A stretch of DNA of 64,000 bases from Theocolax elegans (taxonomy: Eukaryota > Arthropoda > Insecta > Hymenoptera > Cerocephalidae), in assembly GCA_026168455.1 (NCBI GenBank), contig CM047431.1:3811603-3875602 (forward strand), written 5' to 3'. Position 1 is the first letter of the stretch. The number at the start of each line of letters is the position of its first letter. The translations under genes were made by a program, and so were the position numbers. Shown one piece after another: positions 14,701 through 59,396 of the stretch. Under the pieces are notes generated by a model. The model did no database searches, was not told the origin of the DNA, and saw only the letters and a program-made list of their open reading frames with translations.

Positions 14701-15700
14701 CACGTTCTATTCACACGTCATTTAAGTTAGGCTACTGCGTATATAGAGCAGCTGTACATGCAGCTTACTTTCCGCAACTTCCCATATATGTGATGTGCGA
14801 GATTTCCTGTAGCAGTTTCCGCCATACCAGCCAGGTTACCTACCAGCGTGATGGGGGAGCTGGAAAGTCCTCGTGACTTTCCTGAGTCGAATGAGGCAGG
14901 CAGCACTCTAATACCTGCGTTTCTGAAAGAACTGGACATATGTAGGTGTATGTTTCTGAAAAGAAGACAGGTGGTCACGAGGTAGCAAATAACATGCCCG
15001 CCCTGATTTGTCCCATTAACTAAGTTCCCTTACAGTCCGATGGCATCGACCGTTTCTCCCCCATGACCCGCAGCAAGGTCCTATCGGATCACTAGTTGAC
15101 ATTACTGCGAGAAGCAATATTTGCGCTATTTTCAACGTTTATCACTGCAAAGGGCAGCCTCTCTGCCTAGCTAAGCCGGATTCGGGAACAACAACTAATG
15201 GCGGTCCAGAAGTGCAATACTGGCGTTGATGGCAGCACGTTCCAAAATGGACGAGCCTACAGTCACGAAAAAGCCTCCTGTTGACCGCTCTATCACCCAA
15301 CTGGTAACCCTTGCATTGTGTCCGCTCCTCTTAATAAAGAACCCAGTATGGTGATACCACACCCGAACAACGCCCGTTTATAGGGACCTTCCCAATCATG
15401 CCGGTCGGGCTCGTTTATAGAGTCCCCTCTAAATCATGTACAGCTTGGAAAAACCATGTATGTTTAACCGGGGGAACATGTAAATTATTTTTATAGAAGG
15501 CTGCTATTAAGGGTATTCGTGAGAATAGACGCTCAAATAATTCAATGAATGTGGCCTATTCTTTTAATGTTAGAATTTCTATGTCTCGCTTAATGAGTAA
15601 TTTCTCTTTTTCAACTAGACTTAGAAAGATGGACTTTAAGTGATCTATCATTCACACTATTTTTTATATAACACCGATGATGCTAGACCCATGTTGCACA
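14701..15700. other. Anonymous DNA without recognisable gene
   Basis: Mixed-composition sequence; the longest frame (14727-14978, minus) has no family resemblance. I see no terminal repeats, tRNA-like boxes or coding remnants. Confidence 0.4.
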
Positions 15701-15719: not shown

Positions 15720-16465
15720 TCAGCATCTAGATAACTCCTCTCTATTAATGCTTGTATAATTAATTTTTGGATCTGCAAACCTATATTTAGTATGCTCTGA
15801 GGTATTTGAGTTATTACTTTGGTTGCGTGAGCTTACTTGTTGATTAGAGTGAATGCTATTGTAGGTGTCATCATTTCCTTCTAGGGAAGATGTAAAATAG
15901 TTTCCGTTTAAGTCTAAATGTAGCCATGGCAGATCGCTGTCTGCATTTATGTGACAGTATGTATATTTATTTGTATTCAGCTTAAGGTGAATGCATATAT
16001 TGCGATTATATGCAATAGTAAATATATATATACACAATCTACTGTATCGCATTATGTTTGTTTTTAGTGGATAATTGCACCAATTTGCAGAAGTTGGTTT
16101 TCGTAACTTTCTTATTAATTCACTTTTATTAAAGAGTAACATAGAGTTGTTCTAGAGGCATGCTTTACTTATTGAAGTATTTCCGGAAAAGTGACTTGTT
16201 ACCTATTATTTAAATGGTTAAATTTTATCTGGCTATATTGTTTACAAATATTTGGTAACTTTTGGATGTGATAATTGTCTACATCCATGTATGTTGTATC
16301 AGCATTAAGAGTATTAGTTTTAAATGGCTTTAAGCTTTCCTGTTCTAACTGATACAAGAATGCTTTAGAGTATGTACTTCCCCCATCTGTTGATTCTGGA
16401 TCTAATAATGCTGATTCGATTGATTGAATTAGTTTGTATATTGGTTTGAGATCGGAATGTCTCAT
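15720..16465 (-). pseudogene. Unidentified decayed ORF pair downstream of gypsy RT debris
   Basis: Two minus-strand frames in series (16465 to 16199, then 16142 to 15720, in different frames) encode polar peptides. The first contains LIQSIESALLDPEST. The second is Ser/Asn-rich in the middle (SRNQSNNSNTSEH). They follow the gypsy RT-RNase H debris on the same strand, so they could be later parts of that element (pol end or env position). I recognise no domain. Confidence 0.3.
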
Positions 16466-16984
16466 GAGTAACGCTTAGATCCATAGAATCGTTTTCTACT
16501 ATTTTATTTTTTGTTTATGAATCACTAAGTTGAATGGATTATTGTAAAATATACTGAATTCGACCCTTTTCACTGTTTTCCAAGTAGAACATTTTTTGTT
16601 TATACATTTTCATTTTATACTTGATAATATAGCATCAAAATCTATTGTATTAATGTAATCTATGACATATACGTCGGGTTTTGCCGAAATTTCTGCGGAT
16701 AACCAGCGAAAGTGTATTTTCTCATTGTTTTAATAAATTGGTTCGATACATTGACATCTTTTTAGAGCAATCAAATCCAATTCTCCGCATGGCCCGTGTA
16801 GCGAAAATTTTGGCTGGGATATCATTTGAAATTCGGTTGTTATGCATTTCTTGTAAACTTGCGAGTTCGTGTAGCTCAGCGTGCGGTCGTTCGCAAAGAA
16901 AGCGAATCTGCATTTGTAATATGTGCACCGGGTCTATAAATTATATCGAATATGTAACCACTAAATGCGGCTTTGAATATACTG

Positions 16985-17990
16985 AATCGTAGATTTGGCT
17001 TTTTCAACGTATGAAAGTGTTTTAACGGCTAATGGTCCATTACAATTGTGAATCGCCTTCCGTGTAGATAATGCATGAATTAATCTTTAGTAAAGACAAT
17101 TAGTAATAACTGCTTAAAATACGTCGGATAACAAAGTTTACTACCAGGTAAAGACCTGAAATTATAAGCACATTGTTTATCTTTCACTAGTTCTCCAAAA
17201 GCGTAGTCAGATGCATTAGTGGGCTACAATAAAGGGTTGTGTGATATCAGGAGCTTTCAATAGAGGCTCACTGCAAAGAATTTTTTCGAAAGATTTTTGC
17301 TGTTCAGAACTCAATAAGAATTTTTGCCTTCCTGCAATAACTTGAAGAATGAAACTGTTATTTGGACAAAATTAGGTATAAGTCAAGGATAATATCCCAC
17401 TAACCCTAGCTATTGTTCTATTTTGTGGGCATTAGTAGGCTTGTGATATTTTTTTGAACTGATCCTAGTTTTCTGGATCGATTTTAATCGCTTTGCTTCC
17501 TACTATAAATCCAAAAACAGAAGCTTCGTGTTCTAAAAACTGGCATTTTCTTGGTTCGATAGTTAAATTTGACTCCAACAAACGTTTAAGAACATTGTCT
17601 TCATCAAAAGTTTTAGCAAATATCAGATTGTGAAGATATATTTCTACTTCCTCACCTTGTAGTGAGCCCATACCAAATGAGATTGCTTGGATAAAAGTTG
17701 CTGTTGCTTCTTTTACACCTATGGCCACGCGGGTGTACTGCAGATGTTGGTAACCATTTATCCCTACACGTGCAGAAAAAACTGTGTATTGGACTGATCC
17801 TCGAGTTATTTCAATTTGAAAATAACATTGTTTCAACAAGCTGCTCTAATATGTCACTTGCAAATCAAAGGATGACAGATGCCAACTGTAACTTCGCTGA
17901 GCTGCCTGAAGTCCGTAACAAGCCGCCATTTCTAGATACGACCGCTACATGGGTGAGCGTTATATTTTCATCATTGCAAAATGTGTGATG
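16985..17990 (-). pseudogene. Gypsy reverse transcriptase/RNase H fragment
   Basis: Minus-strand reading from about 17900 gives HPLICK.DILEQLVET, then FQIEI and GVKEATATFIQAISF. Next come LQGEEVEIYLHNLIFAKTF (the YLDD box is changed to YLHN), LESNLTIEPRKCQFLEHEASVFGFIVGS, and after frame breaks SSEQQKSFEKILCSEPLLKAPDI with ASDYAFGELVKDKQC (start of RNase H, near 17165-17215). The order is that of Ty3/gypsy Pol. Several stops and frameshifts, and the D-to-H change at the active site, show it is dead. Confidence 0.8.
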
Positions 17991-18256
17991 CATCAAAATA
18001 TACTAGATAATGGGTTGTAAGAGAAATTTACGTGTATTAGAACTTATTCAAGGCCTTCCCTAAAGTGTAAGTATAGATATATGAATGTATGTAATCATGT
18101 ATCTAAGATAACTCGGTGAATTTTTGCACGATTTAGCTAAGATTTATAGGATTAGGACTTCTTCGTCATGTAATTAGATAATGGTCCTATTTCCAGATAT
18201 ATAGCGCAAAAGCAGTTTAAGTTTTTGCATTATTTTAAATTGCTTCGAAACGGTTA

Positions 18257-18563
18257 TGTAACATTATCTTCAAGTGTATTAATCCTACATAAAAACTTTA
18301 TAGGGATCAAATGTTTGTCTTATATCATGCGCGGTTGCCCCACTCCGAACGAGGTCTATGAACTGGCAAGTAGGCGCAGTAGTGGGGGACCGGTCAATGA
18401 CCCGTGGCTATTTATATCGCGGTCGTTGAACTCGCGATTTACGACGCGTGTTTGTCGCAAAACTATCTTACTATACTACGAGTCTTAAACCTACTGATTA
18501 ATTATACTTATTAATTGGATAATTATTAGAAACAATTAGCGCGTGTAATTATTGCGCGTCGCA
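18257..18563 (-). mobile_element. 3' LTR of minus-strand gypsy element 3 (shortened)
   Basis: The block 18448-18563 matches 22841-22938 ('actatcttactatactacg' and the terminal gcgcgtcgca). On the minus strand the LTR starts TGCGACGCG at 18563, directly after a purine-rich tract (18564-18583). The far end is uncertain; a TGTAAC at 18257 is the likely end. The two LTRs differ outside the shared block. Confidence 0.6.
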
Positions 18564-18583
18564 TTCCTCTCTTTCTTCGGAGA
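18564..18583 (-). other. Polypurine tract of gypsy element 3
   Basis: On the minus strand it reads as a Ct/GA-rich tract ending gaaagagaggaa, directly before the LTR start TGCGACG. Polypurine tracts prime plus-strand synthesis in LTR elements. Confidence 0.6.
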
Positions 18584-18899
18584 GTGAAATTTTGATATTT
18601 CACTCTTACAATTATTATCGGAAGTAAAGAAAAAAGATTCGCAAAGAACAAAATTATTATCTATACTTAAATAACGCAAAAATGTGAGATTTAAGTTTAC
18701 CAATTTCAATGCTCCGGCTTGTCATATGTCGTCCGTGCATGGATTCAACCGTAGGAGCCTCTTACACCCTTCGTAGCGAACCACGTATTTCTTTATCCCA
18801 AGCGGTACCGGCGTCTCATTGGAACCTCGGTTGTCCTCGGACTACCGCGGTTGTTCTATGCGAGATTGGTGATGGATTATAGGTGGGAACTGTTGGTAA

Positions 18900-20110
18900 G
18901 CTATAGCTTACTGGCTACGGCACATGTTCCTCCATGTTTTCCTCACGCAGACTGTCGAACCATGCGAAAACTGTCGCGTCCAAATCTTCTGTCTTCTGTT
19001 CTAATATTTGTTCGTACTCCATAATGAGCTTGTTATTGCGTTGGTATACAAGGGTATACTTGTATCCTGTAGTGTCGGTTACGTTTGTGGGCAGCGCGAT
19101 TTCTTTGCCGACACCTAGCGTCTTTTCTTGGAGGTTTTATTTTTGTAATGTGTTCGGTAGCCACTTCGTGGTTTCTACTGGAATCATGGTGTAGATTGCA
19201 TCTACGGCGTCACTATAATGCGGTTTAAGATCCTTTACATGAATATGTTTGATTATTCGATATTTTTTTGTAAATCGAATATTACTGTCGAAATCTTCCT
19301 TTTTACAGTATACGGTCCTTCGAATTTGACTACTAATATTGCATTGAATTTCTTGGCCTTAGGAGACAATTGGGAGTTGCCTTCTTCGTTGATATCTAGG
19401 GTATGCAATATGTGTCGGTACAACCTTCCGTTTCTTATACAATTCTCTGGATTTTCTTTCGGCCGTGTTCTTACTTCTTTAAGCTTGGTGGTATACCATA
19501 AAAAATTTTTACTGGTATGAACGGTGCATACTTCGACAGGTTGTCGAGAAAGTGCGTCTGCAACATTATTATCTGCTCTTCTTCGGTACCGAATTTCCAT
19601 ATCCCATTGGTCTAATTCCATTCTCCATCGTGCCAACCTTCCTGATGGATTGTCGATTTTCTCGAGCCATTTTAGCGACTGATGATCGGTTAGAACAATT
19701 AAGTGATAACCTTCCAAATAGTCTTTCATCTTTCATATGCCCTATTTTACCGCTAGACATTCCTTTTCGGTGGTTGAATAATTTTTCTCTGCTTTATTGA
19801 GGGTTCTGCTGGCGTATGCAATAACTCTCTCCTGTCCGTCTATTTCCTGGGTTAGTACGGCTTCTAAACCATGATTGCTGGCATCGGTTTGTAAACACAT
19901 GACTTTTTCAAAATCTTAGCAGGTTAATATAGGGGCTTTGATAACTGCTCTTTTATTTGATCGAATGCTTTTTGTTGTTCAGGTCCCCAAGTCCAAGCAG
20001 TATTTTTCCTTAGTAATTTACTAAGCGGTGCGATTCTTTTGACACATTGGGTATGAATCGTTGGTAGCATGATAGCATTCCGTTAAAGCGTCGCAATTCC
20101 TTTAAATTCG
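18900..20110 (-). pseudogene. Gypsy 3 RNase H and integrase C-end, with core deleted
   Basis: Minus-strand reading shows the post-RT 'FNGMLSCYQRFIPN' region near 20090, RNase H with LTDHQSLKWLEKIDNPSGR and NNVADALSRQP (19729 to about 19540), then the start of integrase (NGRLYRHILHTLDI). It jumps straight to LSPKAKKFNAILVVKFEGPYTV and HIHVKDLKPHYSD, the SH3-like integrase C-terminus. No zinc HHCC motif or D,D,E core lies between, so roughly 200 residues are gone. Frame breaks occur at about 19740-19930. Confidence 0.75.
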
Positions 20111-20119
20111 TTAGCGGAT

Positions 20120-20701
20120 TCAACGGTCTTGACCCAAATATCGCAACCGTCGTCTTCCGTAATGGCTCTTTTCCCAGTTTGGTCGGAGTTTTACAGCTTT
20201 TAAGCGGCGCAGGACTTCCTCCACCAGTTCAACGTGATTTTCAAATGTTTCTGAAATAATGATGATGTCGGCTAAGTAGCAAAACACGTGCGGTTCTAGA
20301 TCTGGTGTTATCACGCCTTCGGTAATCATGCGTTGAAATGCGGCAGGGGCAGAGTCGAATCCGAACGGAAGGACTTTGACTTGGAAGTGTCGGTCTGGTA
20401 CGGTAAAAGCGGTTAATGGTTTGCTGTCCTCCTCTAGTGGTACTTTTCAATACCCATTTTTTAAATCTATGGTACTGAGGTATCGAGCTCCTCGTTATTT
20501 ATCTAATGTGGCGTTTATCTTTGGAAGTGGGTAAGCGTCCTTGATTGTTACCTCGTTAAGTTTCCGGATATCTACACTTAATCTGTATTTACCATCTTTC
20601 TTTTTGGCTAGTACGATTGGCGAGCTCCACGGACTGGTAGATGGTGCTGTAACTCCTTCTTCTAACATTTTATCAATTTCCTCGTTAATTACTTTTTGCA
20701 T
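20120..20701 (-). pseudogene. Gypsy 3 reverse transcriptase, broken
   Basis: From 20701 the N-terminal RT motifs are clear: EGVTAPSTSPWSSPIVLAKK, DGKYRLSVDIRKLNEVTIKD, YPLPKI. After a stop near 20495 the frame continues in pieces with TAFTVPDRHFQ and FGFDSAPAAFQRM. The catalytic box reads CYLADI instead of Y-x-D-D, with GCC at 20270-20272 (minus strand) where an Asp codon is expected. At least one stop and two frameshifts are present. It would have copied the element's RNA into DNA. Confidence 0.85.
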
Positions 20702-20747
20702 AGTGGGATTTCTAGTGCGGTATCATTGATTAATCTGTGTGGGGTTG

Positions 20748-21386
20748 CTAAGCTGTAGTCCATATTAGTAGTGGAGTGGGTCCCTGAACCTTGTTAATGT
20801 CATTCCGAGCTCTATCAATGATTACATCCATTATTTGCCTATCTTTTGTGTTAATATCCACTAATCCTGGTGTCGTTTCAACTTGACATAAATAGGAACT
20901 TAACGTGCCATTTCCTGGGTATAATTCTTTACCTTGCATTGTTATTTTAAAATATAATTTTGGCAGTATGTCCATTCCTAACAACAAATGATGTCGAAGG
21001 GTGGGCATGACGTGAAAATTCCCAAATATCTTGTTGCCCTTTATCAAACATGGACCGACTATGTTATCTTCAAGTAGTATTTCACTACCATCGGCAAATA
21101 CAGCTAAGTTTTCTTTTGTCACTTTTTTCCATCCCTTGGCTAAGCACCAGTTGGTCGCAACTTTGTTGACGGAGGAGCTAACGGCACCGGAATCAATAAG
21201 TGTTTTAAAACGTCGGCCTCTTACATTTACGATGAAGAAGAATCGGTTGTCTCGTTCGTGGACCGAGTCATTGGCCTGGTTGATTTGGTCCTTTGCCAGT
21301 TTCCTTGACTTGTTCCATGACAGTCTTTCGTGTAGACTCCATCCTTTCCACAAACCGAGCAAAATAGTTTCCACGGGTTTTGGCAT
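20748..21386 (-). pseudogene. Gypsy 3 aspartic protease region
   Basis: About 212 codons open on the minus strand. The protease core reads FFIVNVRGRRFKTLIDSGAV, with the catalytic D-S-G-A triad near residue 70. LLLGMDILPKL follows about 90 residues later, the usual second landmark of retroviral-type aspartic proteases. A broken zinc-knuckle-like CSVCGKDG stretch lies just upstream in another frame. It continues toward RT at 20701 after a stop/frameshift. It is perhaps the best-kept part of the element. Confidence 0.75.
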
Positions 21387-21389
21387 TGA

Positions 21390-22260
21390 TTACAGTTGTG
21401 TCCACGTTGTTAGGGCGGTCATTGTCTCTTTTTGCGGTTTGTTTACTCGGTTGACTTCCAATACGTTGGCTTCATGTTCTTCTACCCTTTGAATCAATTC
21501 GTTTATACTTCTTATTTCGGAGCGGCGGATGTGTATGCGGAGTTCTGCTTTCATATTATAATATAGACTATCCAAATGTTCTTCTGGATCGTAACCACCT
21601 CTTCGTTGCATTGGAGTTAATAATGCTGTGGTGAAATCTTGAATGTTTTCATTCGTCGTCTGAATTCTAGTCGCGACTTGTCGACCCAGATTCCTTCTTT
21701 CTTGCGGAGATAAGTAGAATCATCGTGGTTACTCTTCAACTTCTTTCCATGAATTTGAATTCCTTGCTTGATTACGATACTACTGCAATGCGTTTCCTTT
21801 CAGAAGTTCAGGTAATCCCTGCAAAATTTGTTCTTCAGTGAAAGTGAAAGTCCTATGCTTGTCTTAATTCATCAACTCTTTCCAGAAAAGAATAAAAGTC
21901 TTTTCCTTCGAAGTGACAGTTCCATTTCCTCATCTGATCCATGACTTCTCTTCTTGACGGTACAGGTGGTAATATTCGAGTTGATGTCATTTGCGGAATC
22001 ATATTTTGCTGTTCTTGATTATTGCTGCTAAACTGTCGAAGTAATAAGAGGTTAGCATGATCGGCTGCTAGGTCTTTAGTTATGTCTAAATTTTCTTTGT
22101 AACCTTCGGGATCTGGAGTTTTCTCGGTGAATAACGCTTCATTTAGTCTTACAAACTTCACTAGGCGTTGTCTTAGTTCCGTAACAATACCATCAGTATC
22201 AATATTATGCTTTTTTAGTTCTTCAACTAAATGTTCTCGACGTAATTGGTAAATTTATGA
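21390..22260 (-). pseudogene. Gypsy 3 gag with SAP-like N-terminus, broken
   Basis: The minus-strand reading from about 22260 gives REHLVEELKKHNIDTDGIV and LRQRLVKFV, which resembles a SAP DNA-binding helix-loop-helix. A linker follows, then the capsid start RKWNCHFEGKDFYSFLERVDELRQA, ending in a stop at 21853. After more breaks, GGYDPEEHLDSLYYNMKAEL (21611 to 21390) is the capsid C-terminal region. The same order (SAP-like, linker, 'kWgikFsGd' capsid start) is seen in the gag at 48497. No intact start codon could be assigned. Confidence 0.7.
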
Positions 22261-22417
22261 CACCAGAGTCATTTAACAATTTGTTTTGCTGTCGGAATTT
22301 ATAAGTGTAACAGTGTCAGTGTTATCGCGGCGTCCTAGTGCGATATACAAACTTAACTATTTCGTAAGTTCGCTAAAAAATTTTAAACTAAAATATTTTT
22401 AAATTCCTTTTACAATT

Positions 22418-22433
22418 AACTGTCCAAGCGCCA
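22418..22433 (-). other. Primer-binding site of gypsy element 3
   Basis: Directly after the LTR end CCGTTACA the minus strand reads tggcgcttggacagtt, in the place and with the TGG start expected for a tRNA primer-binding site. Which tRNA is not clear. Confidence 0.6.
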
Positions 22434-22938
22434 TGTAACGGAGTGAATCTTCGCCGGGGCCTTACTCAGATTCCAGGATTCGAGAAGGAAGGAAATTGAA
22501 GTAATTATACCGTAATTTAATTATAAAGAACTAACTATTTATTTAATGTAAATTTAACTTATGTGCAAAAAATTAAAAAATATAGAAAAATGCCGTTTCT
22601 AGTTCTGGCTGGGATGCGAAATTTAGTTAGTCTGGAACAAACAAATAAGCAATACTTAGAATAACGCGAACTTTGCAACTCTATCTTATAATTAGTTCCC
22701 TAAGCGGACGCAACTAACGGTTACCGTGTGTGTTCGTACGCAAATACGGTTGGGATAATCCACATGTGCTCACGAGGATACGGTCGGGTAGCGGTTACGG
22801 GGTTGTACCTACGAACGTGTGCTTACGATCGCATGCACAGGTGTCTGTCGTAAAGCTATCTTACTATACTACGAGTCTTAAACCTACTGATTAAGTATAC
22901 TTATTAATTGGATAATTAATTAATTATTGCGCGTCGCA
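22434..22938 (-). mobile_element. 5' LTR of gypsy element 3, 505 bp
   Basis: On the minus strand it starts TGCGACGCG (22938) and ends CCGTTACA (22434), followed by the primer-binding site. It shares its first ~100 bases with the left LTR (18448-18563). The rest is not alignable by eye, so the left copy is probably deleted or has recombined. Confidence 0.7.
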
Positions 22939-23039
22939 AATTGTTGAGTCAGATTTTTTACCCAATACTCACAAATGGTGCGAGCGCGAAGCACGAGCTT
23001 TACACGATCGTGCCTTATACGCAAAAAGCGAAGCATTTT

Positions 23040-23590
23040 GCATACCTTGCATTGCTACGCGGAGGAGCTCTAGATATAATTGTAAAGTTGAAGTTCAACT
23101 ATATGCTTAATTAAATGTGTTGCAGGTAGAGGCTTACCTCTAAGCCCAAATACTTCGAGGAAATCCTGAATTATTTGTCGCAAACAATCAATTTCTTCTT
23201 TGTTACAACCGTCAAAATCGGCGAACGCCGTAATGTTTTCTATGCGTTCTAGACGTAACGTTTTATTGTTGAATAATTTTGTAGTTAGAAATTGTTAGGA
23301 TCTTGTTTTCTATGTAACAGTCGCCACAAGCATGTAAATATACTAACGGTATATCAATTTCTGCCGTCTCATAGTTTATATTAAGACATTCTGCATATAT
23401 TTTACCTCGGTGGTTAAGTTCAATGAACCTGTTAAATAAGACGCCAGTTTGAATATCTATGAATGAGACTCATTCAACACTATTTTCCTAATTCGTAACG
23501 CGTGCGGTTATAACTCTTCTCACTCGAGAGGCAGAATGATTTTCTCATTAATTTCGAGAGGAATGGCCATGCGTTCAGTTGTAGCCATTT
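23040..23590 (-). pseudogene. Gypsy pol fragment upstream of RT
   Basis: The minus-strand reading from 23590 starts MATTERMAIPLEINEKIILP. It continues through GVLFNRFIELNHRGKIYAEC and LVYLHACGDCYIENKILTI, then RLERIENITAFADFDGCNKE and IIQDFLEVFGLRGKPLPATH. This is the linker between protease and RT in insect gypsy Pol, where 'LPxTHxVxHxI' precedes the RT fingers. Stops and at least one frameshift are present. Its partner may be the RT fragment at 16985-17990, on the same strand beyond gypsy element 3. Confidence 0.7.
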
Positions 23591-48496: not shown

Positions 48497-49597
48497 ATGA
48501 GCGCAATGGCCGACCGAAACGCCGACAGTTTGGCCCAACGAGACGAGGACATTATAGTGCAGGTAGACGAGTGGATCCACACCCAGAACGCAGCACAGAT
48601 CGAGGCTCACCTAGAACAGATGGAGCTTCGACTTGATGGTTCCCGCTATCAAAAGGCGGAACGCCTACAGCAATGGTTGCTAGGAAATTATTCGGCCGAC
48701 GAGTTCAGTCAAGAAACTGACACCGTCAATGATCGGATAAGGCGGGTCGAGAAGCGGACAGAAGTGATCCGCCGAGTCGGGGAGAAAACGCCAGGAGCGT
48801 TACCTGATGAGCGAGGTACGCACCTGATTGAGGAAAATCTCAATCGTACGACCCGACTACCTAGCGAGGACCTGCCAACAGCCCCAGAGGAGGGCCAGTC
48901 TAGCAGCCAATCCAGTCGGAGGGGTAGTCAATCTGACTGGATAACGCTATTAGCGACCGATGGGACGCCATTTGATGTGCCGCGGCTATTCTCCACATGT
49001 CTGGCAGAACAAATTGCCAAGACAAAACTACAAGAGCAAATGGAAAGTATGGCGGCACAGATAACGAGGCTAACCGATGCCGTAAGCCACATGACGTCCC
49101 AAAGAGCAGCAAGTACGCGAATGGATCCACTAGGCCCAAGTCCACGTGTCCAATTTCAGGACACGTATACCTGCTACCGGCCAGAAGAGTCACCGGTTCA
49201 GCAAGAGGACGCACGACTACAGCCCCAAACGCCAGGACCAGCTCCTAGCGCCACCCTGGGCGGAGCTTGGGAGGGGGGAGACACCTGGGTACCAGGAAGG
49301 CCCCCATGTGAAGAAAGTTCACCCTTAAGGCCCCAAGCGTCGTGCGTCCAAGAACAACCGTCCTGGGCTTCGCGCTCATTTAACCCCACACGCGACGGAG
49401 GCGAGATCGTGAGAAAGTGGGGAATAAAGATCTCAGGGGACGGAAGCGAGAGCATTAACAGTTTCTTAGAGCGCGTGGATGACTGCAGAGTCCTAGCAAA
49501 CATGACGCAGGATGAAGTCCTTCCTTCACTCTCGCAGTTGCTGGTGGAAGAAGCCATAAGGTGGTACCGCAACAACAAAGGAAAGTGGAGGAATTGA
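48497..49597 (+). CDS. Gypsy element 2 gag, truncated at C-terminus
   Basis: The frame of 366 codons starts MSAMADRNADSLAQRDEDI. Residues about 30-65 (IEAHLEQMELRLDGSRYQKAE) resemble a SAP motif. A charged linker, a short coiled coil (QEQMESMAAQITRLTD) and a Pro-rich stretch follow. The capsid start is EIVRKWGIKISGDGSESINS with IRWYRNNKGKWRN at the end. It stops at TGA 49595-49597. Further capsid sequence (YQEKLILECTSRTQGEDEPV) lies past the stop in another frame and then fuses to RT, so capsid C-terminus and zinc knuckle are lost. Confidence 0.88.
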   Translation: MSAMADRNADSLAQRDEDIIVQVDEWIHTQNAAQIEAHLEQMELRLDGSRYQKAERLQQWLLGNYSADEFSQETDTVNDRIRRVEKRTEVIRRVGEKTPGALPDERGTHLIEENLNRTTRLPSEDLPTAPEEGQSSSQSSRRGSQSDWITLLATDGTPFDVPRLFSTCLAEQIAKTKLQEQMESMAAQITRLTDAVSHMTSQRAASTRMDPLGPSPRVQFQDTYTCYRPEESPVQQEDARLQPQTPGPAPSATLGGAWEGGDTWVPGRPPCEESSPLRPQASCVQEQPSWASRSFNPTRDGGEIVRKWGIKISGDGSESINSFLERVDDCRVLANMTQDEVLPSLSQLLVEEAIRWYRNNKGKWRN

Positions 49598-49665
49598 AAC
49601 TTACCAAGAGAAGCTGATCCTGGAGTGCACCTCACGTACTCAGGGCGAAGACGAACCGGTACGTG

Positions 49666-52132
49666 AGTACATGAATTGGCATACGCGGGGGCGACCTTTC
49701 AACGGATGATAGACCAAGTCGTAGGACCAGACCTGGCGCCGCACGCTTATGCTTACATTGATGATATTATCGCCGTGTCGGAGACATTCGAGGATCATAA
49801 GCGTTACCTAGAGGAAGTCCTTAAAAGACTGGCAGAAGCTGGACTTTCAATAAACCGGGATAAGTGCGTTTTTTGTAAGTCAGAGGTCAAGTATCTTGGC
49901 GTATTGGTAAACCGGGACGGAGTACGTCCCGATCCCGCCAAGATAGAGCCGATAAAAGAGTATCCGGCTCCGAAGAATATTAAACAGCTTCACCGTTTCC
50001 TTGGTATGGCTTCTTGGCACAGCCGATTTATGCCGGATTACGCGACAATCTCAGAACTCTTGACGCGTTTAACCAAGAAGAACCAGCGGTATGAGTGGTT
50101 TGATGAGCAAGAGCAAGCTTTCCACCAGCTCAAGGCCGTCTTAATGACAGCACCAATTTTGCAGCGTCCTGTCCCAAATGGGCAGTACACACTGCAAACA
50201 GACGCCAGTGACACCGGTATAGGGGCTGTGCTACTCCAACTCGTGGATGGAGACGAAAGTGTTTTGGAGTACGCAAGCCGGATCTTGTCCCCAGCCGAGA
50301 GAAATCACAGTGTCACCGAACGAGAATGTTTAGCCGTTGTCTGGGCAATAAAGAAGTTCAGGCAGTATATAGAAGGTTACGAGTTTCGAGTCGTAACCGA
50401 CCACAACAGTTTGCGTTGGCTCTGCAATATGCGCAACTCAACGAGTTGTCTCGCAAGATGGGCTCTCGAACTCCAAGCGCACACCTTCACGATTGAGCAC
50501 AAGAAAGGTGCGCTTAATCATGTTCCAGACGCGCTCTCCAGAATGTATGAAGAAGGAGAGCCGACGATAGCCTCGGTCTCTTGGAGCGACACTGCTGCTG
50601 ACCCGTGGTATCTCTCATGGGTAAAGGATGTATCAGAGAGACCACGGGAATTCCCCGAATGAAAAGTAGTAGGGGGAAATCTATATACTTACTGGCCTGA
50701 CCCCACCATTGAGGACGTCATGGAAGACCCCGAGGCATGGAAGATGGTAGTGCCTCGAGAGAATCGCCCGTCGATTCTAAGAGAATGTCACGACGATCCA
50801 ACTGCTGACCACTTAGGTCGAGAAAAGACTTTCGCACGGGTTGCCAGATTATACTATTGGCCCCGATACTATGCGGAGGTAGGTGACTACGTGCGGAAAT
50901 GTTAAATCTGCCAGCAGTGTAAGGTAGAGCAGCAACCGCCTAGAGGCCTAAGGGGCCGTAGAGTAGTCGAAAGACCTTGGCAGGTAGTCGCAGGTGATGT
51001 GACTGGACCATAACCTCGCTCTACCCACGGATTCGAGTACATTCTAGTCTTCCAGGACTTATTTACGCGCTGGATTGAAGCGGTCCCAATTAGAAAAGCA
51101 AACGCAAAGACCATAGTAAAGGAGTTACACGAGCGTGTCCTCATGCGTTTCGGCACGCCGGAAGTATTTCACTCCGATAATGGGACCGAGTTAAAAAACA
51201 AGATGGTCGACGCCTGTCTCAAAGAGAAGGGAGTGTACCATACGACGAAACCTCCTTACCACCCTCGAGCAAACCCCGTAGAAAGGTCGAACCGCACACT
51301 TAAGACAATGGTAGCTTCGTACATCAAGGAAAAGCATACCAGCTGGGACGAAAAGCTACCGGAATTAGTGTTCGCGATAAACATAGCGGTTCAAAGCTCG
51401 ACAGGGTGGAGCCCGGCAATATTGAACTACGGTCGACAGCCAGAGCCACCTAGCACGGACCGGCGAGAGCAAGAAGAGCTCGCACAAGAACGGTTTGATC
51501 AGCAGCGGCTCCAGGACTGGTCTGAGAGACTGTCCAGGCTAACCGAGTTGCACAAAGTGGCCTCCGAGAATGCCGCCGCGGCTCAAGCGAGACAAGCCGT
51601 ATATTTCAACGCCGGGCGTCGAGACGAAAACTTTGAAATAGGCGATCTTGTGTGGAAAAAGAACAGAGTCCAGTCTTCCAGCGCTGACAAGACAACCTCT
51701 AAGTTGGCACCAAAGTATTTAGGCCCATACGTGGTTGTCCAGACAAAAGGCTCAAACACGTACCTTATTCAGGACGGGCAAGGCGACGAGGAGATGATAC
51801 ACGCCGAACATCTCAAGCCCTACGTGCCCGACAATGGAATGCCTCTGGCAGAAGTAGACGACGTCGCCCAACCGACGATGGACGAAGAGGCGACGAGCGA
51901 CCCGCCTCATGCGAGCAAAGACACCCCGAGCGAAAAAGTGTACTCTCCGGCCGCTCCCAGCGGGGAGCCGAGGCCCACAGTGAGCGTTCCGCCGACAAAG
52001 GGAAGAAGTCGTCCGCGGAAAACCGCTAGGGTGGTCGTTCGTCCGACAAACAGGGCCATAGAACCGTGCACTAGCGTTAGTGAATCAGAACGGAAGCGTG
52101 GTAGGGGTCGTCCAAGGAAGAACCCGAAATAA
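49666..52132 (+). pseudogene. Gypsy element 2 pol: RT C-half, RNase H, integrase
   Basis: One frame runs from AYAGATFQRMIDQV to the TAA at 52130-52132, interrupted only by TGA 50660-50662, TAA 50903-50905 and TAA 51011-51013. RT keeps the catalytic YAYIDDIIAV. RNase H has TDASDTGIGAVLLQ and VTDHNSLRWLC. Integrase has CHDDPTADHLGREK (zinc region), VAGDVTGP, SDNGTELKNKM and NPVERSNRTLKTM, then the C-terminal domain KLAPKYLGPYVVV. The tail carries AT-hook-like KGRSRPRK and RGRGRPRKNPK. RT fingers, protease and nucleocapsid are missing. No third ORF follows. Confidence 0.92.
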
Positions 52133-53054: not shown

Positions 53055-53304
53055 TGTTACGGACCTAAGCGGAGGTCCGCAACGTATGCACTTGTCAGCG
53101 TATCATAAGCATAAGCGCTAGACGCTGCATCAGCAACTAGTAGGCGAGCTACGAGCTCTCCACGAGGACACCTCTGGGCCACTTCGGTCCCACCCGTCTA
53201 AGAGTTCGGTTGCTTGTAATTAACAACGAATAAACGATTGTAAACCATAAAGGCTTTTATATTTATTGCGCCGATCCAAGGGAAAGGCCGGAACCCATGT
53301 AACA
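53055..53304 (+). mobile_element. 5' LTR of the OTU/macro LTR element, 250 bp
   Basis: It starts TGTTACGGACC and ends CCCATGTAACA. A primer-binding site follows after two bases. The inner part carries an AATAAA at about 53229. No second LTR of this kind is seen in the window. Confidence 0.75.
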
Positions 53305-53306
53305 GC

Positions 53307-53324
53307 TGGTGTCAGAAGTGGGAT
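53307..53324 (+). other. Primer-binding site (tRNA-Leu type)
   Basis: tggtgtcagaagtgggat is complementary to the 3' end of tRNA-Leu with its added CCA. It lies two bases after the LTR end. Confidence 0.85.
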
Positions 53325-53642
53325 TTCCTTCGGTGCAAAAAAATTTTTTTTTCTCTATCCCTTTCACGCGAATCTTGCATTTTTGATTATCTACATTTTA
53401 ACCACACATCTAAAAGTGCACTCCTCCAACTTCTCACGACAGGAAGGAAGGACAGGAAGGAAGGAAGCACACATTTTCAATCACTCCATCCATTTACCAC
53501 CCAACACACGGTAAGTGCATATCGTATATAATTTTTATTTTACCCAAAGGGGACCAATGATAGGGAAAAGGTTTTTCATTGATGCAAAACATAAAATCGC
53601 GCATTACTAATTAACTAATTATTTTTAATCAAAATTATAAAA

Positions 53643-54983
53643 ATGTAGCTTCCCGATTTATCTGCAAGTAGAGAAAGCTTAACAAGTCTACATAACGCTA
53701 GAGATACGATTCGCAGGCTTAATTACGAATCACAACCCGCTGAAACTCAAAATGAACCGTCCTTTACAAGTTTTGCGTCGTCAGAGTGCAATCCGCTAGA
53801 CCGTATTTTATTACAAAGTTTCGCAAATATTAAACGTAATTTAATCGGAAAAAATATACAATACCAAGCAGACAAAATTAGTGAAATTGAACAGTTTATT
53901 GCAAACATTTTTAACGTCGAACCTTCACAATTTAACGCAGAAACCGCGATAAATACTCACAAAGATCATACGAACATGTCTAACACGCATGAAAATCATA
54001 CACACATGACAGATACATACACACAATACTCAAATACAAACGGTATACTACTTAATAACGACCCATCCGCTGAAAGTATTGGTCTTAACGTCAATAAGTC
54101 ACATTTCACTCCACTCCAAATTATAGAAAATCCTACCCGTCAAATCTGTCATACCCCATTTATTAATGCCCTTGAAGCAGCAAAATCTGTTGGTTGTAAA
54201 TTAGTCCCGGCGACAGATAACGATACGCTAGACGACACCGTCACGGCGCGACTGCGCAACTTCTACTCGTCGGCAAACGATTTTCGCTCGAATATGACCT
54301 TTTATCAAGCACTTAATTTTATCCCAAATTTCGACGGCTCTCCCGACATTTTACCCACATTCTCCGCTGCCATAAATAACATTTTAGAAACATACGGTCC
54401 TAGAAGTGAAAAAGATCTATTATTGTGCCTTAATTTGAAGCTAACGGGTAAAGCGGCACAAGCGTATGCGCCTCGTTTACCTCAATACGCGTCAGTGCAT
54501 CAACTTTTAGAGGACTTAAACGCACATTATAATAGTTTTGGTACAGCCGATGACGTCTTAGCGAAGTTAAAACTAGTAATGCAGAAATCGAATGAATCTA
54601 CCAGCGATTATGGCGTCAAAGTACAAACCCTTCTCAACAGACTTATAATAATTTATAACGCGGACTCAGTATCAAATGATTTGCGAAAATCAGCATTAAT
54701 GGAGCATGCCGAACAGGAAGCGCTACAATACTGTATGCTAGGCTTAAGACCGCCATTGGACCATCAAGTCCGGTGCGAAAAACCAACTAATTTAAGAAGG
54801 GCTATACAACTAGCGAACCTTTTTGAAAACAGAATAGCGGTACGCAAATATTTACAATTTAACACGCCAGATACTGAGCCACAAGCCCAAAGCAATCATG
54901 AAGAGAATCTAGTAAACGTACGCAGACTTACCGAATTTCATAGACCGAACTCAAGCAACGCGAACTTCCTGCATTTATTGTGA
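53643..54983 (+). pseudogene. gag of the OTU/macro LTR element
   Basis: The frame starts ATG at 53643 but the second codon is TAG (53646-53648). The same frame is then open to 54983: LPDLSASRESLTSLHNARD, RILLQSFANIKRNLIGKN, and from the next ATG at 53976 the rest. The capsid core has ALNFIPNFDGSPDILPTF, LKLTGKAAQAYAPRLPQ, NAHYNSFGTADDVLAKLKLV, QEALQYCMLGLRPPLD and AIQLANLFENR. These are the usual order in gypsy-type Gag. If the 53976 ATG is used, a protein lacking about 110 residues could be made. A frameshift near 54950 precedes the zinc knuckle. Confidence 0.8.
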
Positions 54984-55425
54984 CAGAACTGATCATTCAA
55001 CAGATAAATGTTTTATACTATTGGATGATTTGAAAACAGGCAAAATTCACGCATACAACAACAATCACAAGAGAGGTAACAATAGCAATCGAATAAATTT
55101 TAATAGAAATAATTACAGTCATTACAGAAAGTCGCAAATCAATAACCAAAATACTTATAGAGATTATAACCGACAGCAGTATAAGGATAACAGTTATAGA
55201 AATTTTGCACGTAGCGACGTCAGAAATAATGACAATCGCAACCCAAATAATAGATATAACAACGACAGGAACGCAAATCAGCATCGTAGATACCAATCTT
55301 ATAGCAGAAGAAGTGACGATCGAACAGAATTAGCAAATTCAGCGAATAACTCATCAGGTAATAATGAGAATAAACATTTAAACTCGGAAGATGCTCGTCG
55401 CAGTCCTCAGGTGTCGAGCAACTAA
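54955..55425 (+). CDS. Nucleocapsid-like region with zinc knuckle, Asn/Arg-rich
   Basis: In this frame CIYCDRTDHSTDKC (54970-55011) is a full C-x2-C-x4-H-x4-C zinc knuckle. About 130 residues very rich in Asn, Arg, Tyr and Ser follow (NRNNYSHYRKSQINNQNT), ending at TAA 55423-55425. A basic, disordered tail fits RNA binding. It lies one frame away from gag, so either decay or a programmed shift separates them. Confidence 0.75.
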   Translation, partial: ATRTSCIYCDRTDHSTDKCFILLDDLKTGKIHAYNNNHKRGNNSNRINFNRNNYSHYRKSQINNQNTYRDYNRQQYKDNSYRNFARSDVRNNDNRNPNNRYNNDRNANQHRRYQSYSRRSDDRTELANSANNSSGNNENKHLNSEDARRSPQVSSN

Positions 55426-55436
55426 AATCTTCTTCA

Positions 55437-55832
55437 ATGGAAGAAATAATAAACGAAGCCATCTCGCAGAAAGCTGCAAGTCTTAAATTTTTAACTACAG
55501 GAAGAAAGCCGCCAATCATCAAACTATTTAGCCCCAACTTAACTAACGAACAAGCAAATTTTTACACCGATACGGGAGCTGACGTATCCATAATTAAAAT
55601 CAATGTGTTAAAAAAGAACACTTGCATTAATAGGGAAACTACCTTGAAAATTAGAGGAGTGACGGACGGAAAAAGTCGTACACTCGGAATAGCAGTGATA
55701 ATGCTACAAGGATTAAAATGCGAATTACACGTAGTCCCAGAAAATTTCCCAATAGACACTGACGGTCTTATTGGTTGGGACGTAATTGCAAAATATAATG
55801 GGCAAATAAATGCCACTGAAAAATATTTATAA
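55437..55832 (+). CDS. Retroviral-type aspartic protease
   Basis: 132 codons, with the catalytic motif ANFYTDTGADVSIIK (about residues 39-53) and the later landmark DGLIGWDVIAKYNGQI near the C-terminus. Length and spacing fit a single-domain retropepsin that works as a dimer and cuts Gag-Pol. It starts 11 bases after the nucleocapsid stop. It appears intact. Confidence 0.88.
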   Translation: MEEIINEAISQKAASLKFLTTGRKPPIIKLFSPNLTNEQANFYTDTGADVSIIKINVLKKNTCINRETTLKIRGVTDGKSRTLGIAVIMLQGLKCELHVVPENFPIDTDGLIGWDVIAKYNGQINATEKYL

Positions 55833-56806
55833 TTGAACAATATAGTAATTCCCTTCAATAAAAATGAGTGTTTTGAGATTCCAGCCAGAGCACGACGCGT
55901 TATTTACGCAAAAATAAAAAATCCTAACGTTATGACAGGCTGAGTCCCGCTCCAAAATTTAGGTCGATACCCGATCGAAACAAAATAATTTTAAATGGTC
56001 AAATTGTCTATTATAAAAATGAATTCTTAGCTGTGAAGAATGAAGAAAACAGTTTTTACTTATGCCGAGCACTAGAAAATCTTTATATTAATCATAAAAA
56101 TATAAAAATAGAATGGCTGTCGCTAAACAAAAATAATCTATACTATCTGGATTACAGCAATAATATTCCATTTGAAAGCATATTAACTAACGTGCAATTA
56201 ATTAAAATAAATAAATTCTATCAGTTAGTATCCGAAGAAAAATGGCGCATAGAAAATATTGTAAGCTTGTCGAATCAGCATTGTATTAATGAACATGGTA
56301 ACGTAACATTACCACCCACTAATGGGGATATATCGATAAAATCTAGCGAAAATGAAAAAATTATAACACAAGCTACAACAGATACCAAGTTGGCATATAT
56401 TTGTAAGGAAGGTAATTTTTCAAAGAAAATAGGAGCAACAAGTACTCCTCTAAACAATAACGATTATGCGCCAAAAGAGCAAAAAAAGAACTATCTCCGC
56501 ACGCAATCTGTGAATCGACCAAAAATTATTTTTGATAGAACTGAGAGAGGTACTCAAACAGATTTCGAAATCGTCGAAGTAAATGCATCTCTATCTACAG
56601 AAAATTCGAGAAAGGAAGTGTCGAGCGCAAAAAATGATATCCTTCAGAAATCGGCGGAAAATAAATCAACGTCGTCAATTTTAGATAGCTTTGCAAAGAG
56701 CGATCATACCAGCTTAGCAGTTAACACAAAAAAGAATAATACTGCAAATAAAAAAGGTCTGCAAATAGATGTGTGGAAAATGTCCACAGGAAATAACGCG
56801 TCATAG
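55833..56806 (+). pseudogene. Linker region of pol: pre-RT part and unknown domain
   Basis: After the protease, FNKNECFEIPARARRVIYAK and IKNPNVMTG resemble the linker that precedes RT in gypsy Pol, with a stop near 55940. From 56033 a frame of 257 codons follows. Its first half (ENSFYLCRALENLYINHKN, IEWLSLNKNNLYYLDYSN, FESILTNVQLIKINKFYQL) looks like a small compact domain. The second half is polar and Ser/Thr/Asn-rich. No RT fingers, no Y-x-D-D and no RNase H are present. It ends at TAG 56804-56806. Confidence 0.6.
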
Positions 56807-56817
56807 AGATCAGCAAA

Positions 56818-58308
56818 ATGAATTCACTCTACGATTCGCACGACGAACACCTCAATCAACGAGTAAACGAGACCCTTGCAACACCAATCCTTGCATCAAA
56901 TTACGAAAATTCATGTCAGCCAATGGTCTCAGACGTCAGCGAGAAATCAGATCTTTCTGGAAAAAAACGAGCGAGTGACGTTTTTTACAAACCAAATGAC
57001 AACATATCTATTACAGACTTATCAGATTTTGCACAATCAAAGCATGGTGACACAGGAAACAAGTCTCAAGAGTCGTCATCAATTTATAATAGTAAGCGAG
57101 CGTATGACTCACCAGTTAACAATAATCTTATTTATGAAAATTGCGAGAATATAGATTCGCAAAACATTAATCAGCGAGACACTCAGGTTAACATAGAAGA
57201 AAACATAAATGAAATAAATGAAGTAGACTATCAAGGAAGATACAGAGTCTACGAACCAGGTACAAGCTGTGCTGAACCTACAGTGAAATTGATACATTCA
57301 CATAACATACCCAGCGAACCACCAAGGAATTGTTTATTTCATTGTTTCACCAAATTGTGCGAATTAGATATTTCAGTTACAGAATTAAGGCATGTTTTGC
57401 TGCACTCACCAATGTTAGAGAAATGTGGAGAACCGTCCGAGGCAAAGAGAATATTAGAGTTGCAAACCGATTATGGCGACGTAGATTGTGTATACATATT
57501 TGCTCACACGTTTCATAAAAACATTTGCATACATTACGAATTGGAAAATAAAACATTTCAATTTTGCCTCTTCATCGCGAATAATTCAGGAGACTTTATT
57601 CATCTACATTTAAGGAATAGGCATTTTACCCCTTATATCAAAGAAAGAAATTCCAAACCCGATAAAGCGAAGGAGAACACCGACGGAGATGAGTCAACAA
57701 CTTCAAGCTGCGAGACTCCCTTCCATCGAGCAGCTGACTGTGACAGCCTTGACTCCGAATCCAATCTCCGCGACAGCGATAACGAAAGTATGCTAAACTC
57801 GAGCGGCGAACCGAACACACGGCTATCACCTTTGAATAGATCCTTGGCTCCGCATGTAATAGCAAATGCGAGACCACCAAGAGAAAAGCCACCATGGTCA
57901 ATGTTAGAAAACACGGAAGTTCAACCATTTACTAACGTACAAATAACGAAAACCCATCCTTTTCGTTATCAAGAAAATCTCGCATTCCTGGTGACAACGG
58001 ATTTTTTCAACACGGAGATAATCGATGCATTAGTTGAAAGGCAATTTATTAGCCTCGACAATTTATCCAACTCAACATTTAACATAGGAGAAATTAACAT
58101 TTTTAACAACAAAGATACACTAATTTTGAGTCTTTTTATAAAAAAACATCTTAATGATAAGCCCTTTAAGGCGGACATAAAAAGATGTATCAAAGTTTTC
58201 AAAGAAATAATAATTTCACACAAAATTGAAAGCATAGGAATTATCAGAGATCTGGCTATGCTCTCACTTTCCCCAAATGGTCATATTTCATCGAACAGTG
58301 CAACATAG
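56818..58308 (+). CDS. ORF with OTU-like and macro-like domains
   Basis: 496 codons, open throughout. Residues 1-160 are polar and likely disordered. Residues about 165-275 resemble an OTU cysteine protease: PPRNCLFHCFTKLCELD with candidate nucleophile C172, ISVTELRHVLLHS, and FIHLHLRNRHFTPY with candidate His269. The usual Asp three residues before the Cys is Pro here. A Ser/Asp-rich linker follows. Residues about 375-496 resemble a macro-like domain (LVTTDFFNTEIIDALVERQF, LILSLFIKKHLNDKPFKADI, IESIGIIRDLAMLSL). The true C-terminus probably continues in another frame (WSYFIEQCNIVF) into integrase. Confidence 0.6.
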   Translation: MNSLYDSHDEHLNQRVNETLATPILASNYENSCQPMVSDVSEKSDLSGKKRASDVFYKPNDNISITDLSDFAQSKHGDTGNKSQESSSIYNSKRAYDSPVNNNLIYENCENIDSQNINQRDTQVNIEENINEINEVDYQGRYRVYEPGTSCAEPTVKLIHSHNIPSEPPRNCLFHCFTKLCELDISVTELRHVLLHSPMLEKCGEPSEAKRILELQTDYGDVDCVYIFAHTFHKNICIHYELENKTFQFCLFIANNSGDFIHLHLRNRHFTPYIKERNSKPDKAKENTDGDESTTSSCETPFHRAADCDSLDSESNLRDSDNESMLNSSGEPNTRLSPLNRSLAPHVIANARPPREKPPWSMLENTEVQPFTNVQITKTHPFRYQENLAFLVTTDFFNTEIIDALVERQFISLDNLSNSTFNIGEINIFNNKDTLILSLFIKKHLNDKPFKADIKRCIKVFKEIIISHKIESIGIIRDLAMLSLSPNGHISSNSAT

Positions 58309-59396
58309 TATTTCAAGGAATTTCAGTAACAATAGTATTTTTTCTCAATAATTTACCGGTACCGCCAGTGGAGGAGCGATGCAAATTAATTCAAGAGTAT
58401 CATCAATCAGCTATAGGCGGACATAGAGGCATAAATAAGACACATAAGAAAATCGCAAATGATTTCTATTGGCGTAACATGCGACCAGATGTAAGACAAT
58501 TCGTCCTCGGCTGTAAAGGATGTCAAGAAAAAAAACTAGTCCGAAGTAAAACAAAATTACCACTGTTGATAAGTGATACACCCAGCCATGCTTTTGACAA
58601 AATTTCACTAGATTTTTACGGGCCCTTAAAAACAACTCCTGCCAATAATCGCTATATACTTACTGCTCAATGTTGGCTAACAAAATATGTAATACTTACA
58701 CCTGTTAAATTCGCCAATGCCCTTGAAGTTGCAAAAACATTAGTTGACAGGCTAATAGCATATTTCGGACCGCCACGCGTGATAGTCACAGATCAGGGAA
58801 CGCACTTTCAAAATAAACTATTTAAAGAGTTTTCAAACATATTCAAGATCGAAAAATACGCTTCAACATCGTACCACCCACAATCTTAGGGAGGAATTGA
58901 AAGAATGCACCATACCTTAACCGAATACCTGAAGCAGTATGTAAATAATACAAATGAATGGGACAATTGGATTTCCTTATGTCAGCACGCGTATAACTGC
59001 ACAGTTCATGAAGCCACGAATTTCATGCCGCACGAACTTGTATTCGGAGAAAAAGCTCGTACCCCATCGAGTTTTCCTCCTAGAGACCTACTAACTTATG
59101 ATGATTATCTAGCCGATCTCACATCGACATTATCACAAAATCAAACACTCGCTTCAATGAACTTAACTCAAGCGAAATATAGGTCAAAATTTTATTACGA
59201 CAGGAAGTTAAACGTTAAACATTTTCGCGAAGGTGAATTTGTTTACCTGCTCAAAGAACCGCAAATCGGTAAATTTTCTAGCACTTTTCACAAACATAAA
59301 GAATATTCCTATAATTTTGTTCAATATTCAAATATGATTTACATAAAAACAAATTATTCATATTTGCATATGTATAAGTTATTGACTAAATAGAGA
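58280..59396 (+). pseudogene. Integrase of the OTU/macro LTR element
   Basis: In frame from about 58285 (WSYFIEQCNIVFQGISVT...LPVPPVEERCKLIQE). The zinc-binding region reads YHQSAIGGHRGINKTHKKIA, FYWRNM and CKGCQEKK. The core has D in ISLDFYGPLKTT, D in IVTDQGTHFQNKLF and E in GGIERMHHTLTEYL. An in-frame TAG at about 58888 replaces the residue before GGIERM. The C-terminal part has YNCTVHEATNFMPHELVFG and FREGEFVYLLKEPQIGKFS, then loses likeness. It stops at TAG 59391-59393. Confidence 0.88.

What the first reader, a model, noticed from the sequence alone, without database searches (positions are those of the whole stretch)
53055..59396. LTR retroelement with OTU-like and macro-like domains but no reverse transcriptase
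The sequence shows LTR, PBS, gag, zinc knuckle, protease and integrase in normal order. Between protease and integrase there is a 496-codon open frame with an OTU-like region (NC at residues 171-172, H269) and a macro-like region, and no RT or RNase H. A macro-like domain between RNase H and integrase occurs in some insect gypsy Pols, to my knowledge; an OTU domain there is unusual. Ginger DNA transposons pair a gypsy-type integrase with OTU proteases. The element might be a chimera, a non-autonomous form, or a family whose RT was lost only in this copy. The ORF being intact while gag and integrase carry stops is also notable.
Basis: partly seen in the sequence, partly recalled or inferred. 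Interest (0 to 1): 0.8.

Follow-up and report, generated by a model that had tools for sequence, protein, structure and literature searches.

The report
Gypsy element with OTU and macrodomain
A decayed jumping gene, probably from an insect, belongs to a Gypsy-type family whose polymerase protein carries a ubiquitin-protease-like and an ADP-ribose-binding-like domain before its integrase; this copy lost its reverse transcriptase by a deletion.

The parts
53055..53304 (+). 5' LTR, 250 bp, TGTTAC...GTAACA
   Evidence: no second copy found in the window
53307..53324 (+). candidate primer-binding site, TGG-starting, tRNA-Leu-like by recall
   Evidence: sequence; tRNA assignment recalled, not tested
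53649..54980 (+). gag reading frame, 444 codons
   Evidence: no Pfam match
54970..55011 (+). CCHC zinc knuckle (CX2CX4HX4C), in a shifted frame
55539..55808 (+). aspartic protease (RVP)
   Evidence: E 3e-5
55830..55964 (+). remnant of the leader between protease and RT, two stops
   Evidence: aligns to P0004 up to residue 147
55965..56005 (+). deletion junction: stands for P0004 residues 148-838 (RT, RNase H, linker)
56006..56317 (+). tentative BAH-like domain
   Evidence: Pfam BAH E 0.0038, under cut-off; profile control inconclusive
56756..56779 (+). short motif GLQI[DN][VI]W shared with P0004, role unknown
56797..58308 (+). open frame holding the OTU-like domain and most of the macrodomain; a slice of Pol, not a separate gene
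57313..57636 (+). OTU-like domain; Cys codon 57331-57333, His codon 57622-57624
57930..58350 (+). TARG1-type macrodomain (ends placed by eye), crossed by a frame change near 58263-58269
   Evidence: fold of relative P0001
58365..59303 (+). integrase (H2C2 and rve), one stop at 58887-58889, C-terminal end lost
23293..23526 (-). second copy: protease-RT leader remnant
16897..17931 (-). second copy: decayed RT and RNase H
   Evidence: RVT_1 E 6e-5, under cut-off, on 17468-17845
16559..16756 (-). second copy: remnant of the BAH-like region
15792..16034 (-). second copy: OTU-like remnant
15454..15594 (-). second copy: end of macrodomain and start of integrase
   Evidence: E 6.7e-4 in the 5-kb search

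Best explanation
What it is: a deleted, decayed copy of a Ty3/Gypsy-type LTR retrotransposon family, probably of insects (the one named relative is a wasp), whose Pol reads PR-RT-RNase H-(BAH-like)-OTU-like-TARG1-type macro-IN. This copy lost about 690 codons (RT and RNase H) and its 3' end. How the family probably works (inferred): reverse transcription and integration run as in any Gypsy element. The inserted modules travel in Pol next to integrase. The OTU-like domain most likely binds or trims ubiquitin on Pol, integrase or a host restriction factor, so that the particle or integration complex escapes degradation. The macrodomain, which has lost the glycine loops of TARG1, and the possible BAH-like domain most likely serve as binding surfaces for chromatin or host partners rather than as enzymes. 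Shown: anatomy, homology, deletion relative to P0004, conservation. Inferred: every functional step. I give the anatomy 0.9 and the mechanism about 0.35.
Against: The OTU aspartate of DGNC is Pro or Lys and the residue two after His is Thr in 4 of 4, so catalysis is doubtful. No Pfam OTU or macro match for any single sequence tried. Against the YOD1/OTU1 pair alone the OTU score is weak, 21.2. Structure models are weak overall, mean pLDDT 43.1 and 42.3; the listed rows of the fold searches do not cover the OTU part. Only four relatives were found, one of them (P0003) without RT in its gene model. The whole-genome search did not complete, so copy number and the share of copies with RT in this genome are unknown.
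Confidence: 0.8

Rival explanations
1. The element is an RT-less, non-autonomous family mobilised by a helper element.
For: No RT in this copy; the E. hayati model P0003 also has protease-RT leader and OTU but no RT.
Against: P0004 and the second copy in the window have RT and RNase H. P0003 matches P0004 at 59-284, 1199-1364 and 1796-1890, so its gap begins at another place than this copy's (after 147) and it also lacks most of macro and IN, as a decayed or mis-joined gene model would. This copy has stops, frame changes and no 3' LTR.
Confidence: 0.05
2. A Ginger DNA transposon, or another OTU-bearing transposon, inserted in a Gypsy element.
For: Ginger pairs a Gypsy-type integrase with OTU (PMC2836005).
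Against: One integrase only; OTU precedes integrase, whereas in Ginger it follows; P0001 and P0004 carry the same order in one uninterrupted frame; P0002 starts inside the end of the OTU and continues the same way.
Confidence: 0.02
3. The OTU-like and macro-like domains are both catalytically dead and act only as structural or partner-binding parts of Pol.
For: OTU acid positions not kept; TARG1 glycine loops replaced and the position of its catalytic Asp is Ser in 4 of 4 (residue roles recalled).
Against: OTU Cys and His are kept in 4 of 4 across 38.7-44.9% identity; the position of the TARG1 catalytic Lys stays Lys in 4 of 4 (role recalled).
Confidence: 0.4
4. The OTU-like domain is a second polyprotein protease that frees integrase from Pol.
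For: OTU-type proteases process polyproteins in some plant RNA viruses (recalled; PMC6357015 seen in a search listing only).
Against: The element already has an aspartic protease; no cleavage site was sought.
Confidence: 0.08

Closest known systems
Ty3/Gypsy LTR retrotransposons
   Same: LTR, gag knuckle, PR, RT, RNase H, H2C2-rve integrase in order (window copy with P0004)
   Different: about 860 residues, with OTU-like and macro domains, between RNase H (to residue 682) and IN (from 1543) in P0004
Ginger1 DNA transposons (PMC2836005, abstract and passages)
   Same: Gypsy-type integrase together with an OTU domain
   Different: cut-and-paste element with terminal inverted repeats; OTU C-terminal to integrase
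Helitrons/Helentrons with OTU or VTD domains (PMC6431247, PMC9741609, passages)
   Same: a deubiquitinase-type domain carried by a transposon
   Different: rolling-circle elements built on a RepHel protein
Burro giant Gypsy elements of planarians (PMC6431247, section 7 read)
   Same: Gypsy-type polyprotein with added domains tied to ubiquitination and apoptosis
   Different: other domains (such as MATH_TRAF_C, SUMO-like, BIR, BCL2-like) and other positions; internal region up to 25 kb
TARG1/OARD1 (C6orf130) macrodomain
   Same: sequence profile and fold
   Different: glycine loops and catalytic Asp position replaced; part of Pol
OTUD3/OTUD5/YOD1 OTU deubiquitinases
   Same: collinear profile match with Cys and His aligned
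   Different: DGNC Asp and the acid two after His not kept

Membership tests
Ty3/Gypsy LTR retrotransposon | LTRs at both ends | tested here: inconclusive
   5' LTR 53055-53304 found, no 3' LTR in window; 3' end of element lost
Ty3/Gypsy LTR retrotransposon | aspartic protease and H2C2-rve integrase | tested here: met
Ty3/Gypsy LTR retrotransposon | RT and RNase H between PR and IN, in this copy | tested here: not met
   deleted relative to P0004
Ty3/Gypsy LTR retrotransposon | RT and RNase H between PR and IN, in the family | tested here: met
   P0004; second window copy, decayed; P0003 without RT; P0001, P0002 not scorable
OTU deubiquitinase | OTU profile | tested here: met
   hhalign score 47.98, 0 of 300 shuffles; decoys 8.56, 11.29; subsets 41.43 (OTUD) and 21.21 (YOD1/OTU1); Pfam silent
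OTU deubiquitinase | OTU fold in a solved or confident model | tested here: inconclusive
   helices then strands at 106-205 of P0001, low confidence; listed fold-search rows do not cover it
OTU deubiquitinase | catalytic Cys and His | tested here: met
   4 of 4 aligned regions; His is Tyr in the decayed second copy, whose Cys region was not scored
OTU deubiquitinase | third catalytic (acidic or Asn) residue | tested here: not met
   D of DGNC is P/K, His+2 is T in 4 of 4; residue roles recalled
OTU deubiquitinase | ubiquitin cleavage | not testable with these tools
   needs purified protein
TARG1-type macrodomain | macro fold and profile | tested here: met
TARG1-type macrodomain | glycine loops and catalytic Asp of TARG1 | tested here: not met
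   loops align to other residues, Asp position is Ser in 4 of 4; Asp role recalled
BAH domain | profile match | tested here: inconclusive
   Pfam E 0.0038 under cut-off for the window copy, no BAH hit for P0004; 9 of 200 shuffles reach the score; the positive control is itself weak, 24.44
Ginger1 transposon | OTU C-terminal to integrase | tested here: not met
   OTU N-terminal to IN in the window copy, P0001 and P0004

The most novel reading that the evidence does not exclude
An insect Gypsy lineage carries a working deubiquitinase and a chromatin- or ADP-ribosylation-reading macrodomain as a built-in extension of its integrase, using them to shield the integration complex from host ubiquitin-based restriction and to steer it on chromatin.
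Probability: 0.2. Interest if true: 0.75.

Novelty: new variant of a known kind. Interest (0 to 1): 0.5.

Why it matters
Deubiquitinase-type domains recur in unrelated mobile elements (Ginger, Helitrons) and ubiquitin-linked ones in Burro, hinting that ubiquitin control is a common battleground of transposons and hosts. A Gypsy Pol with an OTU-like domain and a TARG1-type macrodomain beside the integrase adds a further case, in a retroelement, and gives compact, testable protein domains (OTU-macro-IN, as in P0001).

Tried and rejected
Single-sequence Pfam and PDB searches for OTU and macro gave nothing useful. A small OTU profile of two sequences gave only score 21.15, 1 of 200 shuffles reaching it; the five-sequence profile gave the clear result. 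The PDB profile search with the OTU alignment listed six weak unrelated hits (negative elongation factor E, an odorant-binding protein). BAH: the PDB profile search gave two weak unrelated hits; against a four-sequence BAH profile 9 of 200 shuffles, and against the ORC1 pair 54 of 200, reach the score; left as tentative. Fold searches: no OTU chain is among the listed rows, which the macrodomain and integrase fill; this neither supports nor excludes the OTU fold. The first structure job, on the window copy, was poor overall. Scans for relatives gave none: P0001 in viral contigs and genome contigs, the OTU and macro alignments in viral contigs; plasmid records gave 4 with generic Gypsy-Pol-like or integrase matches. 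A separate ORF for OTU-macro-IN (ATG at 56818, Met start of P0001) was considered and rejected, because P0004 reads through in one frame. Literature: ten searches; by title, abstract start and the passages I read, none of the listed papers is about OTU or macro domains inside a Gypsy Pol. One search listed 15 of 28. The library lacks most subscription journals, and Repbase was not searchable.
Full report
Observation. The window copy begins with a 250-bp LTR at 53055-53304 (TGTTAC...GTAACA), followed by a TGG-starting primer-site candidate (the tRNA is recalled, not tested). A gag frame (53649-54980), a CCHC knuckle (54970-55011, shifted frame), a protease (RVP, E 3e-5) and an integrase (H2C2 E 1.2e-18, rve E 6.2e-11) follow. 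No RT or RNase H was found in the seven frames scanned or by tblastn of a relative. No second LTR was found in the window, and the integrase match stops at 59303, so the 3' part is lost.

Relatives. The three protein searches returned P0001 (849 aa, OTU-macro-IN), P0002 (633 aa, end of OTU-macro-IN) and P0003 (1369 aa, Eretmocerus hayati, a chalcid wasp), and P0004 (1901 aa). That the window is insect DNA is an inference from P0003 and the mobile elements around. P0004 is one uninterrupted frame: RVT_1 at 327-489, RNase H at 554-682, H2C2 at 1543-1597, rve at 1614-1712, all above cut-off; its protease matches are under cut-off, but it aligns with the window's protease over residues 3-100. tblastn of P0004 on the window copy is collinear: 3-147 to 55530-55964, 839-1028 to 56006-56779, 1069-1509 to 56806-58269, 1507-1855 to 58263-59303. 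Between them 148-838 is missing, with 41 nt in its place. That is the RT, the RNase H and a linker.

Second copy. On the minus strand of the same window, P0004 matches 23526-23293 (122-199), 17931-17225 and 17448-16897 (RT and RNase H, within 336-701), 16756-16559 (858-924), 16034-15792 (1287-1364) and 15594-15454 (1500-1546). Another Gypsy element lies between 23293 and 17931. The RT piece reaches RVT_1 at E 6e-5, under the curated cut-off. This copy is heavily decayed (many stops; OTU His position Tyr), but the order is leader, RT, RNase H, BAH-like, OTU-like, macro end, IN.

So RT loss is most likely a deletion in this copy. Against too simple a view: of the four relatives, one has RT (P0004), one gene model lacks it (P0003), and two start downstream (P0001, P0002). 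P0003 matches P0004 at 59-284, 1199-1364 and 1796-1890, with a weak DUF4371 match between; its gap starts elsewhere than in the window copy and it also lacks most of macro and IN. The genome of the window could not be searched (14 unanswered calls), so the share of RT-bearing copies is unknown. A neighbouring Gypsy copy of another kind (48497-52132) has only 70 nt between its gag frame and a frame that starts within RT, so internal deletions occur elsewhere in this window too.

The open frame. In P0004 the BAH-like, OTU-like, macro and IN parts share one frame; the window copy changes frame near 56780-56806 and near 58263-58269. The 496-codon ORF is thus a slice of Pol. With 3 stops and 3 frame changes counted in 1682 codons (the change across the deletion and the gag-to-protease change not counted; the gag change not checked against a relative), none in 488 codons has P 0.18-0.29: no sign of separate selection.

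OTU-like domain. Four sequences (window, P0001, P0003, P0004; P0002, which holds only the end, and the decayed second copy were left out) align over 142 columns, with N30, C31, Y78, G79, D82, H128, T130 and P131 among the invariant residues. No OTU match in Pfam or PDB by sequence. Against a profile of OTUD3, OTUD5, OTUD1, YOD1 and OTU1, hhalign gives probability 94.12 and score 47.98 over 104 columns; 0 of 300 column shuffles reach it (mean 11.9, sd 2.4, max 25.39); the reversed alignment scores 7.68; decoy profiles 8.56 and 11.29; two OTU subsets against each other 54.20. Against the OTUD subset alone the score is 41.43, against the YOD1/OTU1 pair alone 21.21. The catalytic Cys and His align. 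The Asp of DGNC is Pro or Lys, and the residue two after His is Thr in 4 of 4. The model of P0001 shows helices then strands at 106-205 with low confidence; the listed fold-search rows do not cover this part.

BAH-like. Pfam BAH E 0.0038 for the window piece, under cut-off; no BAH hit for P0004; 9 of 200 shuffles reach the profile score, and the positive control is itself weak (24.44). Tentative.

Conservation. P0001 against P0004: OTU 43.0%, macro 42.6%, IN 59.3%, flanking linkers 20.0% and 7.4%. The two added domains are maintained as domains.

Mechanism. Inferred only: OTU-like domain as ubiquitin binder or protease protecting Pol, integrase or the particle; macro (and BAH-like) as binding platform. 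A catalytically dead OTU is about as likely as an active one.

Known relatives. Ginger1 carries OTU C-terminal to a Gypsy-type integrase (PMC2836005, passages); Helitrons carry OTU and VTD domains (PMC6431247, PMC9741609, passages); Burro Gypsy elements carry other ubiquitin-linked domains (PMC6431247 section 7). No paper on OTU or macro domains in a Gypsy Pol was seen in the listings (one search listed 15 of 28). I therefore call it a new variant of a known kind, with the caution that subscription papers and Repbase entries were not searchable.

Noticed in passing
window 48497-52132 (+): A different Gypsy copy whose gag frame is followed after 70 nt by a frame starting within RT; protease and first part of RT appear to be missing.
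   Followed up: partly
window 17931-23293 (-): Another Gypsy element (RT match 20707-20132, RNase H match 19954-19535) lies inside the second OTU-macro copy.
   Followed up: partly
window 2841-4198 (-): piggyBac-type transposase (DDE_Tnp_1_7, E 3.6e-58 and 5.9e-14) in two overlapping frames.
   Followed up: no
window 56756-56779; P0004 about 1021-1028: Short conserved motif GLQI[DN][VI]W in the otherwise drifting linker between the BAH-like and OTU-like regions; role unknown.
   Followed up: no
P0003 (Eretmocerus hayati), residues 405-523: Weak DUF4371 match (E 0.00013, under cut-off) between the RT leader and the OTU in one gene model; perhaps a nested transposon joined by gene prediction.
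   Followed up: no
plasmid records NZ_CP087956.1, NZ_CP065944.1, NZ_CP065945.1: Gypsy-Pol-like stretches in records named as Wolbachia and Bacillus licheniformis plasmids; might be eukaryotic DNA in plasmid collections.
   Followed up: no
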